Made by a program: the position numbers and the translations under genes. Source: Lenzites betulinus (Eukaryota; Basidiomycota; Agaricomycetes; Polyporales; Polyporaceae). Taken from it: DNA of 64,000 nucleotides. The notes beneath the pieces were generated by a model that saw only the letters and a list, made by a program, of their open reading frames with translations, made no database searches and had not been told where the DNA came from. Below are positions 1,911 through 36,082 of the stretch, piece by piece; the stretch's first letter is position 1, and each line of letters starts with the position of its first letter. The stretch is from positions 1 through 64,000 of the forward strand of contig JABYQU010000054.1 of NCBI GenBank assembly GCA_022264855.1. Reading direction: 5' to 3'.

Positions 1911-4494
1911 TCAACCTACTATGCCGAAAACCCAAAATGGTGCTTCAAGATGTTGCTCCCCCGGATGATCGGTAGGGCCCGTCGGGTTGGAAGAGTGAGT
2001 GGTGGATTCAGATTCCGTGGGTTCAGTTTGCACTACTTGAGGGTAGAGAAGTCCGTCCCACACATGTCGCCTCGGACTACTGGGTTCGTCTTCGTGGGGA
2101 ACAGTGGCCATGGCGAGAAAAGGAGCGCATGGCAGATTCACCCGGACAGTTGTCATGTCAAACCCCTGTATCTCCAGAGCAACATACCACAGCGCGATTG
2201 GGTAGTTCTCAATCACCACTGTGTACAAAGGCTCGTTTTCTAGATTCCAGGGACCTGTTGGCAATGGTTTGGTCTGACCGTCGGGAAATACGTTCCGATG
2301 GAGGTGTCTGATGAGCTCCTCTGAAACATATGACACGCTGCTTCCTGAGTCATAGATGTCAACACAAGTCACTCGGAAATCTAGGGGGGGTTATTTGCCC
2401 ACCAGTGTCCAGAATGACTTCTACTCCTCCATCGGGTACGGGACATTTCGACACAACGTTATATGTCTGAGCGCCGCCATCCGAGCCAATTGCTTGTTTC
2501 ATAAGGGTCAAGCCTTTCAAGCGCATGCTCCACGTATTGCTCCGACTCCCTAAAGATTCGGCGGGGACTGGGATCTTGGGGGACCACTCGACCTTCTGAC
2601 TGCAGGGCCAGCGGTTGATTGAGAACCAATCTTCAAGTTGGCTATATAATTGTTCAGATCAGTGAGAACCCACAAGAGACATAAACAGCCAGATAACCCG
2701 AAGCATACCTTTGTGGAATGGCGGTTGGTATATTCGATCCCCTATATCTAGGTGGCGGCCGTAAGACGAAATACAGCACAAAACCGGTCTTTCCCAGGGT
2801 AGTTTTATTAGCTCTAAACTCGAAGTCTGACTAGATAGCATAGGCAATGACGCCACGTTTACATACCGTTTCCGGGGGTAGAAGCTCTTTGTACTGGTCG
2901 AACGCGGACATGAAGCTCTAAAAGTAAATTTTAAAACTTTTCAGTATTGAAGAAACCCACTCGGAGTGCCAAGTGACGCGCAAGGAATCGGTGGTCACAC
3001 ACCGGAGCAGAGGGTGCGCCAACGGCGGTCCCCGAAGGTGGCAAATCTTGTACGCTAGACATTGTAGATCAGTATAAGCGCAGAGGCACAGTGTATAATG
3101 CTTGACCCCACTTAGAAGTTCCCAACCCAATACTTCCGTGGATGCATTCGTGGATCAACCCTCTAGTAGCTCCAAAGCATACTCCAAAGCGGAACTCTGT
3201 TTGAGGAGACCCCCAGAATAGCCCGTTGCTGTCCCATAGAAAACTTCCATTGATTCTTATATCTGCGAGCTCTGGTGCAAGGGTCACAACTGTTGAGAAT
3301 GGTGTCAAGCCGTTGTTCGCCCTGAAACATCAAATGTAAAGCCCAAAGTCTTACAAGCTGATGCGCCACGATCATATTGAACAACTCTGGCAGGAGCCTT
3401 ACTGTCAATGGTGATAAGCTTACTGTCAGACCCTTCACGCCAGCCTGGGCGCGTAGGATCGTCGACGTAGTAGGTCAGTATTGGTTTGGCTGGTGGGTTG
3501 GAATACACGCCGGCGGGCGAAGTGTAATACCCCTGATGATCATATTCACCCGTCACGTCGTCCCTGAAGAACAGTCTGTAGACTGGCGTGGGGAGCGTCG
3601 GGGGAATAGTACTCGCATGATCGTCTTTGAGCCACATGATTCGAAAGTCTTCTGAAAATAGCCAACTGCGAGGAGTGAATATGAATATTAGCAGTGCAAA
3701 ATCACTTCAGGGCTCGTCCCCGCGGTGTGTGTGTGAGGTACAACATAGAGCCTCACCTAATGTTCGAGCCTGGGAGTAGTTTTAGCTTACATTCGTAGCG
3801 CATAACAAACAATATGTTTTGAATCAAGGCGTACCAGTATCCATAATCAAATCTTGGAAAATCTCTGTCTCAGGATCATCATCGGAAGACAACACCCGCT
3901 GACTGTCAGAATGTCCCTCAGGCATCCGAATCGGACGTTCGGTGACGGCCTGTAGCTTCTTTTCAGTCATGACGTACAACGGGCAGCCTCTGAAGGCAGC
4001 TTGAGAGAGCATATATACAATTGACATGGTGTACACCTGCGAGTCTTCAAATCTATGATTCAACTTGCCGCGCGCCGGGGGCTATGACGATGAACGAAAG
4101 TATGAGGGCGGCATAAGTTCGTATGGCCCGTCCTGTCCAAGCCGATCTCTCGATTAGTTCCGCAGATACATAGTTAAACAGTCATGATAGAGAAGAGCCG
4201 GAAACGCACATCGTCATTAGACTGCACGTCTGATGTCTGTTTGAAGGCTTCGTCGGGGGTCTAGTTGTCCATGAACCCTGATTTGTAAGAGCAAATGCTG
4301 CCGTTCTTGTACGACCTGTCCCACTGTCGCTGTAGATGATGATATAACATGAGCTCTCCACGGCAGATAATAATATCAGTTAGGATCGAGAAATGACACA
4401 CCCGTCTTGCCGCTGACCCAAACTGAGGAGGCTTGAGGTTGATAACATAGCCCTGGAGATCTTGTTCGTCGTCTGAGAGTTCAACAGACGACAT
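1911..4494 (-). CDS. Pepsin-like (family A1) aspartic peptidase gene with split catalytic motifs
   Basis: Supported exons: 4494-4402 (acidic N-terminus, MSSVELSDDE); about 4329 onwards; one ending at 3835; 3769-3757 (13 nt); 3665-3355; from 3289 (end unsure); 2917-2867; 2830-2709; 2641-2403; 2344-1911. The first active site DTGSN is assembled across three exons. The flap region YDRGASAF and the GSIGLG motif follow, then an FVLYFVL strand and WSMRLKGL. The second active site ILDTGSSVSYV is again split inside its Gly codon. Both catalytic Asp are present. No signal peptide is seen, unlike secreted fungal A1 enzymes. Odd points: a TAG at 4263-4261 interrupts the otherwise open second exon, the intron 2866-2831 is only 36 nt, and the donor near 3100 is weak. 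The gene may therefore be intact or freshly decayed. A paralogue lies at 30744-33025. The family is firm; expression is not. Confidence 0.72.
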
Positions 4495-30743: not shown

Positions 30744-33025
30744 ATGGATGACATATTATCAGACACCGGCGCAGACGACTCGGATGGCACTACAGTCTTC
30801 GTCCTTCAGCCACCCAGAGTGTCATCATCCTTTGAACGGGTACGTCAAGGTTTCTCTACCTTATTACTTACTACTATATCACAGCCCTGTTGCTTACATT
30901 GCGTTCACCCACTGGCACCGCAGCGACTGGCAGACACTTATCGTCATGGAACAACCCTCAAAGAGGATTCCCCACCCGGGGTATACTTCAAGGATGGCAA
31001 ACTTGTTTTGATACACTTCCCGGACTTGTCAGACACCGATCATTTGACCGATCAGGATTTGGCACCGTCCGAGTCTGGGTCCGACACTGCAGTTGATACC
31101 TCAAGCTCAGAGAGCTCCACGGAGGTGAGAGAATGCTATATAGTAGTACCACAAGTTAGCTCATTGTCTGAGTAACATTCTTTAAATTGTAGGAGGACTC
31201 GGAGGTCGAGAACTCGCCGCTGAATAGGTCTCCATCACTTCAGAAGAATAAATCTCTGCTCAGAGCAACAACACCCCCACGTAGCCATGCCCATGTGGGT
31301 TCGAGTTGGAGGCCACATGATGGCACATATTTGGGTTTATCCTCTAATGTTGAATTTGTGAAACGGACGAATCAAGAACCCGACTGCTGTTCGTGTCTCC
31401 TGTCTGTTGGAAAGGGACCCAGACTGACCAAATTCAACCTATGGCAGATGAATACTACTTCGTGAATCTGGTGCGCACATTTCTTCCGCTGCAATAACTT
31501 TGATTAATAGGATCTGATTTCCGTCCGATCAGGTTACAACACAATTTGACAGCCACTACTCTAACAACAAAGAGGAGGAACTATTTCGACTGGAAGTAGA
31601 TACTGGTAAGCATAATATCCGCTCAAGACTTTACTGTATTTACACTAGTATCTATTAACGGTTCGCTCTGTGCAGGGAGCGACGTGACGTAAGATTAATG
31701 CTTTCCCTTCTTATATCTAATCTGACTGCTCAATGCACCAGGTGGGTTTTGACATCAGGAGTTTATAAACTCCCACCAGACTCCAAAAAAACTGCGGACA
31801 CCATAACAACTCCCGTGCACCTCAGGGCATATGATGCAGATGAACTGGGCGCCCATTCTGTAATGGTCAACGTTGGAATCGACCTCGACTGCCCGCCACC
31901 TGTTACAGAGGCTAACATTGAGAGACTTTGTGATGGAGTTGTCAAGTATGCGGACCTGTCGCGAGTCAGTGAGTGATCTAACTTTGTGTTTGATCCCCTA
32001 ATGTGCTAATGTTTCTCCATTGGAAGTGATCAAGCTCGTCAAATGTGCGCCAGAACGCCGCTGGAAATTCATGGATAGTATGGAATGGGGCAGCAAAGTT
32101 TACCAGAGACCCCTAGACTTGACTGATAGGTTCCGTATGGGGGCCTGTTGCGCTGCAACTAAGGAGCTAGTTGTTGAACAATTCTATGATGGACTACTCG
32201 GGCTTGGCCCTTCTTGGTGAGATTGCATACAATAACTGTTGCATGGCTTACATCATGCAATGTGATACTAGGTATCAAGGCCTTGAAGGAATCACCGGGC
32301 GAGGAGATGCTGAGACTACTGCACCGGTGCGTCATCCAAGTCATGCATGCTTTACTGCCACGTCTGCACCCTCTTGGAAGTGCTTTCTCATGCAAGTACA
32401 CACAGAGTGTCTTATCCAGGCTCGCAAGAAAGCTCAAGCATCATCGTGATGTATGCACTCGAGGTTGTACATGTCATCCACTGCCAAACTGACTTGATTA
32501 TGAATGTTAATGTCAGAGCCGCGGTGGGCATGGTGGAGTAGCCATGTATTTCATCATCCCGCCATTAGTATTGTCCAATACAAGTCCCGCAGAAAGAAAA
32601 CAGTGGTTCGTGTGCTATTTGGCTCATATCACTTAATGCCATGAGGCCTCTGACTGTCCATACAGGGTGCCAGGGGTCCTTGCATTCCAGAAATGGCCAT
32701 TCACCCATAAGCCACCGTTTGCCTGGTCTAAGCCGATCCCAATTGGCCTGAGTCGTGCTCGTTGAGATGTGCCGTTGATCCGGATGAGGATCCTGCACTT
32801 TACCTCACCCTCTGACGGATCTGACAGCCCCAACAGCTTTTCCACTCAGGAGCTCATCAACAATTGTACTGTCCTGCTGGATTTTGATTTGAGCGGAAAG
32901 TTGTATGCTGTCGATACCGGTACGTGACTGTATAATTTCATTTCTTGAATATATATGCTAATGTGAACATATATATACCTTAGGGACGAGTGTGTCATAC
33001 TTCCCGACGGACGTTGATACGGTAA
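30744..33025 (+). pseudogene. A1 aspartic peptidase paralogue, truncated and stop-containing
   Basis: Colinear with the gene at 1911-4494. The N-terminal exon 30744-30839 (MDDILSDTGA) ends at the same point and in the same phase, and the next exon starts at 30924. An exon ending at 31605 carries FRLEVDTG, followed by the 13-nt exon 31676-31688 and an exon from 31742, together reading DTGSDVTWV. The FYDGLLGLGPSW motif lies at 32185-32220. The second active site AVDTG ends at 32919 and resumes at 32984 as TSVSYFP. A TGA at 32763-32765 interrupts the C-terminal lobe, and similarity stops at about 33025, where a CpG-dense sequence begins, so about 150 residues are missing. Both catalytic Asp survive, but the gene cannot make a full peptidase. 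The TGA could derive from CGA by loss of methylated C. Confidence 0.82.
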
Positions 33026-34094
33026 GAGGTGCTCTGACGGCCGATAGCCGAGGGGTAGAGGACGTCTAGGTGTGTGATGAAGGGGAGTAAGGTCTCGAGC
33101 TCCCTAGGTTCGCTAGTAGGCCGGCCCGCGTACTGTTCGCGCGCTAGCAGAAGGGAAGCCTCTCGCGCACAAGGCAAGAGCGCGCGCGGACTCGCGCTGT
33201 AGAAGGGCGCGCGCGGAGGTAAGCTCGGTAACGCAACGCGCGCAGGAATAACGCAACGCTCGCAGTCAGCCGCGGGGCTTCGCAACGCAGTACGCCCGCA
33301 GTAAAACGCAGGAGAAACGGAATAGACGCAATATACGCAACTGACGGTACGCTGTCACAGCGGAGAGGTCTCCAGTCGTCCTGCCTTGAAGGGGAAGCTG
33401 TTGCTCGTCAAGAAGCGTGAGGGACACGTTCCCAGCAGTTGAGAGAGTGAGGGGTGGATTGTCTGGGGGGTTCGAATGCCCCGAAATGACTATGTACAAG
33501 AATGCCCGCAGGCTGAATCAAAAACACGTGCTACCACACGGAAGATAAGCGGAAACCGGGCCCGGGATGCCTCGCGCGCCGGGCGCACTCGCCGCGCGCG
33601 ATCCGACTCTTCGCGCGCCTCGTGCGCGCGCCACTGATGCGCCCAGCGGACCCGCGCGCGCGAGCAGCTAGGGCAGAGGGCTCTGGATAGCGACAGGCAT
33701 CGCGCGCGCCGTGGTGAAGTGCCCCGCGCGCATCTTGACCTTGCGCGCGATGGGCTACGCGCACTGCGCGCGCGACGTAGGGGGTACCGAAGTGTGCGGT
33801 GGGCTCTGCGCGCGCTGTGGTTGGCGTGCGCGCGCAAGGGTGGAGAAGGAGGGTTTCTGGCCTGGAACGCCTGTGGAGTGTATCAACGTCGTCAAAACTC
33901 TCTCCGCTACGTTCACGCCTCAATCGGGGACTACTACCGCAGCCGCACAAGCTACAGAAGAAGTCAAGCCAAGTTACAAGGTCCCTGTCGACTCGGAGTT
34001 TAGGCGGCCGCGAAACCACTTGTTTGTTGTTTTTGACTTCTCTTCCGAAATCCGCTTGAACGCCGATGGCACACCCGCCAAGGGCAACGGAGGC
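33026..34094. repeat. CpG-dense block with recurring CGCGCG
   Basis: About 20 CGCGCG-type runs occur between 33130 and 33840, often 20-40 bases apart, together with ACGCAACGC repeats at 33225-33340. The block begins where the peptidase relic ends. Long open frames on both strands here follow from the base composition and show no protein motif. Confidence 0.5.
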
Positions 34095-34196
34095 ATGGCA
34101 CCCGCCGAGGGCCATGGCACACCCGCCGAGGGCCATGGCACACCCGCCGAGGGCCATGGCACACCCGCCGAGGGCCATGGCACACCCACCGAGGGC
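34095..34196 (+). repeat. Minisatellite, 21-bp unit
   Basis: Four complete 21-bp units (CATGGCACACCCGCCGAGGG plus C), the last with one change, follow a partial unit. The unit is a multiple of three, so it stays open in both directions (HGTPAEG on plus, MALGGCA on minus). No conserved protein is recognised around it. Confidence 0.85.
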
Positions 34197-36082
34197 CATC
34201 GTGCCGCGCCATCATACACGTTTCCTTGTCCTGCAGCAAATTTTCTGTACAATGGAGTTGGAGAGGGCCTCTTATGGCCCAGCGCTACGCATACAATCTT
34301 GGGACTGGTACGTGAAACAGTAACAAGTTCAGCACACTGTGCCGTCACTAATATTTGAACCCTTGCTACCCAGAATTTCTTCCACGTGATGCTCGTCTGC
34401 CTCCATCGCGCTAGGCAGGGCAACCCTTTCGTACAATTCGCGCCCTTTGACTTTCCCTCCGCTACGAAACTTGCTGATGAAATAAATACTGGATTACTGC
34501 GTTCAAGTTGAGAACTATAACCTCCTTTCTTCTTTGTATCATTCGACAATGTGAATAGTTTGTAACAACTCCAATATACAATCCATATCAGTGTTTCACA
34601 AAAAGTGTGGAAGTCGAAGTCGACTACACTATCAGACGGCGTCTGACTCTTTTTCTTACTAGTACAATCATACATGACTCGACCGTATCTGACATGACAG
34701 GCCGTGGTTGATCCACATCTAGGGTTATGTTGCTCTGCCTATCGTCTGCTGAATAAGTAGAATAACAGCCCCGAGGGCCTAGACAGCCCGAGATCGAGGA
34801 GTTCGGAAGACAAAACTCTGCCGCCCCCTCCACCCGCACGACGTGTCGCGTCCCACACGACCGCCCTCTCCCCGCATGATGCGTCGCTCCCCGCACGACT
34901 CGGACATCCCGCTCCCTGCGAAGACCCGTCTCCGCCCCTCGCACGACGCCTCATCGCGCCGTCTCGCTTCCCACACACAATGCTCTCATTTGTTGCCACA
35001 CGATGCCCTGCTTACCTCACAACGCCTCTCGTCCCGCACGACCGCATGTCGCATCGCTCCCTGCACGACTCGGACGTCCCGCTCCGCTCCCCGCACGACT
35101 TGATGTCCGCTCCCCGCATGACGCCTCGCTCGCTCGCTGCCACCACGCCACCCGCTCGCACTGCACTACTACACCCTCCTCCATCCACGTCTTGCGCTTG
35201 GGCCGGCAGTCCATGTCCACATACGAGCCAACTCTGCGCACAAGAACGACCCAGCAGCGGGCTTAGTATGCCATGCCACATCGAGAGTTAGGAGCACTCA
35301 GTACTGACATCAGCGCTCAGGTAGCCGATTCCTTCCCTATGCCGGCGCTTTGAAGAGAGAACTTCCTGGCTCGTGTATATATCTCACAATTGCTCTGCCA
35401 AACAACTTTTGTGTGTAATAAAGTACTATAGCATAGCTATAATCTCCCTGAAGACCTCGCTATCCTTACTAATTTATGCCTCACATGTTAGGGCAGGTTT
35501 TGTCTCGTCTGCTGATACGAGCGCCAATGTGTGCAACCGGCGCCAGTGCAGCTCTTCACGCGCAAGGAGAAGTGCTCCAATAGAGCTCAAAAGCTTTGAA
35601 AATGCCGTATGTGTACTTTCAGCATGGAACAGCATAGTTGAGTGTAGCATGAGCAAAATCAAACTGCGACCGCTCGCATATGCGGGAGATGAAAGATGTA
35701 CACGTTTGCTCCCCGCAAAGACGATTTCTTCACCCACAGATACTGAATCCTCGCAACAGTTTGCGCATATGTATTATTACACAATCATAATGGAACACAT
35801 CCGAGCCAACGAACCCAGACAATCTCCTATTTACCACCCGTGTAGCACTCCACGTACTAACCCGACACCCCTCGCTCAAGCTGCCAGGCCCATATCACTT
35901 CAGTATGCATATGCATAGTGTTAATCAGCACGTCGCGGGCTATGTTCTGCGCATGAACACCCGCGTAGTGAGCATTCAGCGCGGGCGGCCAAAGAGCGCA
36001 TAGTATGGAATCATAGGTCCTATGTGTTCAGCGGGCCTGATGGCGCTAAAGTGAGCGACGGCAGAAGTCACATCGTGGACAC
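34197..36082. other. Gene-free stretch with degenerate C-rich repeats
   Basis: At 34865-35150 the motif CCCCGCACGACTCGGACNTCC and variants recur at least four times, interleaved with CGCATGATGCGTCGCTC. The 181-residue open frame at 35373-35918 has no motif or splice support. I see no gene. Confidence 0.45.

What the first reader, a model, noticed from the sequence alone, without database searches (positions are those of the whole stretch)
3757..3835. A 13-nt microexon completes the first catalytic motif of an A1 peptidase, conserved in both paralogues
In the gene at 1911-4494 the exon ending at 3835 stops after GAT ACT G. A 65-nt intron follows, then 13 bases (3769-3757), then a 91-nt intron, and only the joined product reads DTGSNISW. 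In the paralogue the same happens at 31605, 31676-31688 and 31742 and reads DTGSDVTWV. Exon size, phase and position are identical although the two proteins differ widely. Gene finders will normally miss a 13-nt exon and report these loci as broken or as non-peptidases, so a whole clan of basidiomycete A1 proteins may be mis-annotated.
Basis: seen in the sequence. Interest (0 to 1): 0.85.

Follow-up and report, generated by a model that had tools for sequence, protein, structure and literature searches.

The report
Tiny exon inside pepsin-like catalytic motif
In a wood-rotting bracket fungus, a family of pepsin-like genes builds its first catalytic motif from three exons, the middle one only 13 bases long; it looks like a real, well-kept gene feature of a kind already known from other fungal enzymes, and gene annotation often, though not always, gets it right.

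Summary
At 3769-3757 (minus strand) and 31676-31688 (plus strand) a 13-nt exon joins its neighbours to read DTGSNISW and DTGSDVTW. The genome is that of Lenzites betulinus. I located seven members of this family in it; six have the 13-nt exon at the same place and phase, five of these at 24-27% protein identity. In the seventh (contig 75) the first intron is missing, so DTGSSLS lies in one exon and the second intron is kept, which supports the spliced reading. Three members give stop-free models of 642-659 aa over 13-14 exons.

The proteins look like a divergent A1 (pepsin-like) branch: Pfam Asp passes its cut-off in 4 of 9 tested, and 32 of 33 PDB hits at E up to 1 are named as aspartic proteinases.

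That gene finders normally miss the exon is not borne out: 5 of 8 annotated homologues retrieved carry the motif, two of them from this species; one breaks exactly there. All 8 are hypothetical or uncharacterized in NCBI, more from divergence. B is a broken gene; A may be. Micro-exons in conserved motifs of fungal enzymes are in print. New member of a known kind.

The parts
3757..3769 (-). gene A: 13-nt micro-exon GCTCGAACATTAG, starts in phase 1, leaves phase 2; supplies most of GSNIS of DTGSNISW
3835..3949 (-). gene A: exon before the micro-exon, ends GATACTG
3770..3834 (-). gene A: 65-nt intron, GTACGC...CCCAG
3666..3756 (-). gene A: 91-nt intron, GTGAGG...CGCAG
3355..3665 (-). gene A: exon after the micro-exon, starts T|TGG
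3112..3289 (-). gene A: exon with GSIGLG (hydrophobic-hydrophobic-Gly region of lobe 1)
2403..2641 (-). gene A: exon ending in the second catalytic motif GACACTG, split again after the first base of the Gly codon
1920..2344 (-). gene A: second-lobe exon, DTG|SSVSY
31533..31605 (+). gene B: exon before the micro-exon, ends GATACTG
31676..31688 (+). gene B: 13-nt micro-exon GGAGCGACGTGAC; DTGSDVTW
31742..31968 (+). gene B: exon after the micro-exon, starts G|TGG
32027..32216 (+). gene B: exon with DGLLGLG
32666..32919 (+). gene B: exon ending in the second motif GATACCG; holds an in-frame TGA at 32763-32765
32984..33014 (+). gene B: start of second-lobe exon (DTG|TSVSYFPTD), cut by a repeat insert
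33015..33885 (+). 871-bp high-copy insert in gene B, ends TGATAC...GTATCA, flanked by ACGT on both sides; solo-LTR-like
33886..34307 (+). gene B: rest of the second-lobe exon, ends ...HTILGL before a GTACGT donor
34374..34511 (+). gene B: last exon NFFHVMLVCLH...

Best explanation
The 13-nt exon is a genuine, constitutively needed micro-exon of a divergent pepsin-like (A1) family in Lenzites betulinus and probably in related polypores. Two short introns, one after the first base of the Gly codon of DTG and one before the Trp, frame the tip of the first catalytic loop. Because both introns are short with ordinary splice sites, the splicing machinery most likely removes each across the intron (intron definition), so exon size is no obstacle. 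Skipping the exon shifts the frame, since 13 is not a multiple of three, so purifying selection holds its length. The arrangement predates the duplications that made the present paralogues. Shown: the DNA layout, its recurrence at 24-27% protein identity, a fused-exon paralogue with the same reading, and published gene models that contain the joined motif. Inferred: splicing in the cell, the intron-definition route, presence of the exon in other species, and ancestral status.
For: Same exon length, phase and place in 6 of 7 members located in the genome: A, B, contigs 46, 71, 1 and 50; A, B, contig 71 and contig 1 are 24-27% identical to the contig-46 model. Hand-joined stop-free models of 659, 654 and 642 aa with 14, 13 and 13 exons and largely shared intron phases. 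Contig 75 carries DTGSSLS in one exon followed by a 67-nt intron at the same phase-2 position. NCBI model P0001 of Lenzites betulinus (480 aa) is contained letter for letter in my contig-46 model; P0004 agrees with contig 71 at 99%, differing near one upstream splice site; both have the motif. P0002, P0005 and P0006 keep the same motif spacing. Introns of 53-91 nt with GT donors and YAG acceptors, as the pattern required; skipping changes the frame in all six, with a stop within the 40 residues printed in 4 of 6. No match in 100 shuffles.
Against: No RNA reads could be examined, and what the published models rest on was not seen. Whether the homologues of other species also have a 13-nt exon was not seen in DNA, since no other fungal genome was at hand. 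B is a broken gene and A may be one, so the two copies named in the finding are the weakest witnesses; contig 50 also seems to change frame between its lobes. No YTNAY branch-site match in the expected range for the first intron of A. The acceptor after the fused exon of contig 75 is AAG.
Confidence: 0.93

Rival explanations
1. The micro-exon is a regulated switch: inclusion makes an active peptidase, skipping or intron retention makes a truncated protein or a transcript destined for decay.
For: 13 is not a multiple of three, and skipping or retaining an intron breaks the frame or adds stops in nearly every case printed (retaining the first intron of contig 46 alone keeps the frame open). A 20-nt micro-exon in Xlr2 of Trichoderma virens works as a glucose-dependent switch (PMC11121469, passages).
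Against: No expression data here. Splice sites look ordinary. The frame consequence follows from any exon of that length and is no sign of regulation.
Confidence: 0.06
2. Chance or pseudogene decay: a continuous motif was broken by small insertions that happen to look like introns.
For: B has an in-frame stop and an insert; A has an in-frame TAG upstream in my model.
Against: Six loci share the same layout, five of them at 24-27% identity, three with stop-free models, and two published models of this species agree.
Confidence: 0.01
3. The intron inside the Gly codon of DTG is a very old one that was present before the two lobes of the pepsin fold arose by duplication, since it lies at the matching base in both lobes.
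For: The second motif is split at the same codon position and phase in all 7 members, and the first in 6 of 7 (contigs 50 and 75 read by eye). One ordinary A1 locus (contig 58, L041) also has DTG|S split in phase 1.
Against: 28 of the 30 other A1 loci whose first motif was located have it in one exon, and one more has an intron one codon earlier (L021, read by eye). Repeated intron gain at a favourable site is simpler.
Confidence: 0.04

Closest known systems
Micro-exons in fungal cytochrome P450 genes (Phanerochaete chrysosporium P450ome; Fusarium CYP621A)
   Same: Very short exons (2-10 aa; 8 nt in an I-helix motif; 1 nt in the PKG motif) inside conserved motifs of fungal enzymes (PMC1184071 and PMC12940212, passages).
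   Different: Different enzyme family; here the exon sits in the first catalytic Asp motif of a pepsin-like protein, has one fixed length in six paralogues, and one paralogue has it fused.
20-nt micro-exon of Xlr2 in Trichoderma virens
   Same: Short frame-shifting exon inside a functional domain, searched for across the genus and missed by gene models (PMC11121469, passages).
   Different: There inclusion was reported to depend on glucose; nothing here shows regulation.
Peptidase family A1 (Pfam PF00026 Asp; candidapepsin, pepsin, renin)
   Same: Two D-T-G motifs, an invariant Tyr where the flap Tyr is expected, a DGILGLG region, an end motif GLNFFQ where candidapepsin-5 has GDNFLR (the role of the flap Tyr is recalled).
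   Different: Very divergent sequence, N-terminal extension without an obvious signal peptide, some members with a changed motif (P0007 DTACED; P0003 second motif NTG).
Ordinary A1 peptidases of the same genome
   Same: Same catalytic motif; one locus (L041) has an intron at the identical base.
   Different: First motif in one exon in 28 of 30 loci where it was located; no 13-nt exon fitting the pattern.

Membership tests
micro-exon (exon of about 30 nt or less, spliced between two introns) | short exon bounded by GT..AG introns and needed for the reading frame | tested here: met
   sequence level only:
micro-exon | present in mature mRNA | not testable with these tools
   no RNA data; published models P0001 and P0004 contain the joined motif, but what evidence they rest on was not seen
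peptidase family A1 (pepsin-like) | two catalytic Asp motifs D[TS]G[ST], one per lobe | tested here: met
   first motif DTGS in 7 of 7 members of this genome; second DTG in 7 of 7, its fourth residue S, T, A or R; not kept in P0007 (first) and P0003 (second)
peptidase family A1 (pepsin-like) | Pfam PF00026 over its cut-off | tested here: inconclusive
   4 of 9 proteins over the cut-off (P0001, P0004, P0005, contig-1 model), 5 of 9 not; partial A and B proteins below it
peptidase family A1 (pepsin-like) | profile similarity to solved A1 structures | tested here: met
   33 PDB sequences at E up to 1: 32 named as aspartic proteinases, 1 only as endopeptidase; best E 0.001
peptidase family A1 (pepsin-like) | pepsin fold | tested here: inconclusive
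   both models poor (pLDDT 41.2 and 44.7); the second finds BACE1 in 46 of the 50 rows listed, none with E up to 0.001; the first finds nothing sensible
peptidase family A1 (pepsin-like) | secretory signal and propeptide | tested here: inconclusive
   no hydrophobic N-terminus seen by eye in the contig 46, 71 and 1 models; no predictor run
peptidase family A1 (pepsin-like) | proteolytic activity at acid pH, pepstatin inhibition | not testable with these tools
   needs bench work

The most novel reading that the evidence does not exclude
The 13-nt exon is a splice switch for catalysis: the fungus tunes how much active, perhaps intracellular, pepsin-like enzyme it makes by including or skipping the exon that completes the first catalytic motif, and the whole family keeps the exon at a frame-breaking length for that reason.
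Probability: 0.06. Interest if true: 0.75.

Novelty: new member of a known kind. Interest (0 to 1): 0.38.

Why it matters
It gives a clean test set for gene callers: one fixed 13-nt exon in six copies plus one natural fused-exon control in the same genome. It also points to a poorly described branch of pepsin-like proteins in polypores that is hypothetical or uncharacterized in the NCBI records retrieved and often falls under the Pfam cut-off even when the motif is intact. For intron evolution, the same intron position in both lobes and its absence from one first lobe are a small case study.

Tried and rejected
A 36-nt intron in A (2866-2831) from my first model was replaced by a 78-nt one (2866-2789, AAG acceptor), which aligns better with contig 46; this is my choice, not proven. 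An alternative intron 4095-4045 with a weak GTTCAT donor opens a further upstream exon of A, but the TAG at 4263-4261 remains. Several junctions in the hand-made models were chosen by frame and homology; P0004 differs from my contig-71 model near one of them.

Structure: two AlphaFold2 jobs on alignments of 8 sequences gave poor models; Foldseek against PDB was uninformative for the first (best VPS26A, E 0.05) and pointed weakly to BACE1 for the second. I draw no fold claim from them.

Protein searches: the third one (P0007) returned only itself, and two of the three scored only the candidates sharing most words, so 8 homologues is a lower bound. PF00026 in six frames gave 66 pieces, none of them in the seven family loci, so that profile misses this family exon by exon. 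A weak hit of B on contig 18 (E 0.22) was fetched as L052 and showed no split or continuous motif; left unresolved.

My first count of continuous motifs read only one strand of loci L019-L048; one search recounted on both strands: 29 motifs in 28 of 35 loci. Two of the 37 loci (contig 27 near 44 kb, contig 77 near 12.5 kb) were not fetched; in five the first motif was not located.

Tree (13 sequences): contig 75 groups with B and P0003 with bootstrap 55 and 67 on the two branches, so loss of the first intron in contig 75 is the simpler reading but weakly supported. The sequences of contigs 50 and 75 and of B in that tree were partial and hand-assembled from frames.

Literature: searches on micro-exons with basidiomycete, aspartic protease and fungal genomes, and on aspartic peptidase introns listed nothing on A1 peptidases with a 13-nt exon; I saw listings only for these, and they cover open-licence PMC papers alone.

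Full report
What is there. Gene A (minus strand) and gene B (plus strand) each build the first catalytic motif of a pepsin-like protein from three exons. The middle exon is 13 nt in both: 3769-3757 and 31676-31688. A pattern for this split motif found just these two places in the window and none in 100 Markov shuffles of it.

Where it lies. The window is contig 59, bases 1-64000, of a 37.4-Mb assembly. A protein record of Lenzites betulinus (P0001, C2E23DRAFT_840714, 480 aa) is contained letter for letter in my contig-46 model, and the contig length given with it, 351436, is that of contig 46. A second record (P0004, C2E23DRAFT_536341) matches contig 71 at 99%, with contig length 177331. So the genome is that of Lenzites betulinus, a white-rot bracket fungus (its way of life is recalled, not from a call).

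More copies. Searching the same genome with the two proteins and with homologues gave five further members: contigs 71, 1 and 46, contig 50 and contig 75. Contigs 71, 1, 46 and 50 have a 13-nt exon at the identical place: GGTCATCTGTTTC (DTGSSVSW), GTAGTAATACAAC (DTGSNTTW), GCTCTAACACCAC (DTGSNTTW) and GGTCCTCCGTGTC (DTGSSVSW). Contig 75 instead has GACACCGGGTCCAGCCTCAG in one exon, then a 67-nt intron at the same phase-2 position (with an AAG acceptor), then TGG: DTGSSLSW. So 6 of the 7 members located have the micro-exon, 7 of 7 have its downstream intron, and the exception shows the joined reading without any first intron. The search scores only its best candidates, so more members may exist; a weak hit on contig 18 stayed unresolved.

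Gene models. For contigs 46, 71 and 1 I joined 14, 13 and 13 exons by hand into open frames of 659, 654 and 642 aa with the intron phases largely shared. Identity to the contig-46 model is 24-27% for A, B, contig 71 and contig 1; contig 50 is closer to contig 71, at 35-60% over the pieces matched. The second catalytic motif is split after the same base of its Gly codon in 7 of 7 members (contigs 50 and 75 by eye). Other exons are small too: a 23-nt one in contig 46 and several of 37-55 nt. The 13-nt exon is thus the extreme of a very intron-dense gene.

State of the two genes in the window. A runs further than stated, to 1720, but in my model has an in-frame TAG at 4263-4261 in an early exon; no frame-keeping intron of 40 nt or more inside that exon removes it. 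It may start further down or be decaying. B has an in-frame TGA at 32763-32765 and an 871-bp insert at 33015-33885 with ends TGATAC and GTATCA and ACGT on both sides. A search with 33022-33900 scored 40 places in the genome, itself included, out of 84 candidates, at 95-100% identity, so the insert looks like a solo LTR. Beyond it B continues to a recognisable end exon NFFHVMLVCLH at 34374-34511. B is a broken gene.

What the proteins are. The joined proteins show the two DTG motifs, an invariant Tyr where the pepsin flap Tyr is expected, and DGILGLG-like and GLNFFQ-like regions (the pepsin reference features are recalled). PF00026 passes its cut-off in 4 of 9 proteins tested and fails in 5 of 9; the partial A and B proteins stay below it. 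A profile of eight annotated homologues finds 33 PDB sequences at E up to 1, 32 of them named as aspartic proteinases and one only as endopeptidase, best 0.001 for candidapepsin-5. Structure models were poor and I do not rely on them. I call them divergent members of the pepsin-like A1 group, activity untested.

Do gene finders miss the exon? Eight annotated homologues were retrieved in three searches. Five carry the motif: P0001 and P0004 (Lenzites betulinus), P0002 and P0005 (Trametes versicolor), P0006 (Pilatotrama ljubarskyi). P0003 (Pilatotrama) reads ...QRASSNTTW, losing DTG just where the 13-nt exon should begin, which hints that the same 5' boundary exists there; this is inference. P0007 (Rhodofomes roseus) reads DTACEDTF with the same spacing. 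P0008 (Ganoderma adspersum) starts downstream of the motif. All eight are hypothetical or uncharacterized in NCBI; UniRef calls P0007 Aspartyl protease. Against this reading, the Xlr2 micro-exon of Trichoderma was missed by JGI models (PMC11121469, passage). I did not see records for A, B or contigs 1, 50, 75; the search filter does not allow the conclusion that none exist.

Is it special to this family? The same genome has 37 other A1 loci when the 66 PF00026 pieces are grouped by distance. For 35 of them a stretch was held; the pattern for the 13-nt exon found nothing there on either strand. In 28 of the 35 the first motif lies in one exon (29 motifs). One (L041) has an intron at the identical base of DTG but no second one, and one (L021) has an intron one codon earlier (L021 by eye). 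In five the first motif was not located.

How it works. The flanking introns are 53-91 nt with GT donors and YAG acceptors in all six copies, as the pattern required. Skipping the exon shifts the frame in all six, with a stop inside the 40 residues printed in 4 of 6. Retaining one intron gives stops in the printed stretch in 10 of 12 cases, the exceptions being the first intron of contig 46 and the second of contig 50. Short introns let the splicing machinery pair sites across the intron, so a 13-nt exon is no obstacle; this is general knowledge of fungal splicing, not shown here. The likeliest account is a constitutive exon kept at fixed length because anything else destroys the enzyme.

History. 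In a tree of 13 sequences the micro-exon members are spread over several branches and contig 75 sits near B with weak support (55 and 67). An ancestral micro-exon with loss of the first intron in contig 75 is simplest. The shared intron position in both lobes could be parallel gain or an old intron; I favour parallel gain.

Known or new. Micro-exons inside conserved motifs are in print for fungal P450 genes, and a 20-nt one in Trichoderma Xlr2 is reported to act as a switch (PMC1184071, PMC12940212, PMC11121469; passages only). My paper searches listed none in A1 peptidases (listings only). This is a new member of a known kind, unusually well supported by paralogues.

Noticed in passing
33015-33885: 871-bp repeat with TGATAC...GTATCA ends and ACGT flanks inside gene B; a search with most of it scored 40 places in the genome, itself included, at 95-100% identity.
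   Followed up: partly
34099-34199: 21-bp tandem repeat, 4.8 copies, lying in frame in the second lobe of B and coding for repeats of TPAEGHG.
   Followed up: partly
2403-2344 and 32919-32984: The second catalytic motif is also split after the first base of its Gly codon; the same was seen in all seven family members located.
   Followed up: partly
L075 1134-1153 (contig 75, 140833-140852): Seventh family member with the first intron absent and the 13 nt fused to the upstream exon.
   Followed up: yes
L051 2349-2371: A second very small exon, 23 nt, lies upstream in the contig-46 gene; A may have a similar 18- or 26-nt exon at 4036-4019 or 4044-4019.
   Followed up: no
L041 850: An ordinary A1 gene on contig 58 seems to have a 53-nt intron at the identical base of DTG, without a second intron.
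   Followed up: no
L071: The contig-50 copy seems to change frame between its lobes and may be decaying.
   Followed up: no
G000 contig 51, 223-299 kb: Several ordinary A1 peptidase genes on one contig, reading DTGSSNTWVG and DTGSSDTW.
   Followed up: no
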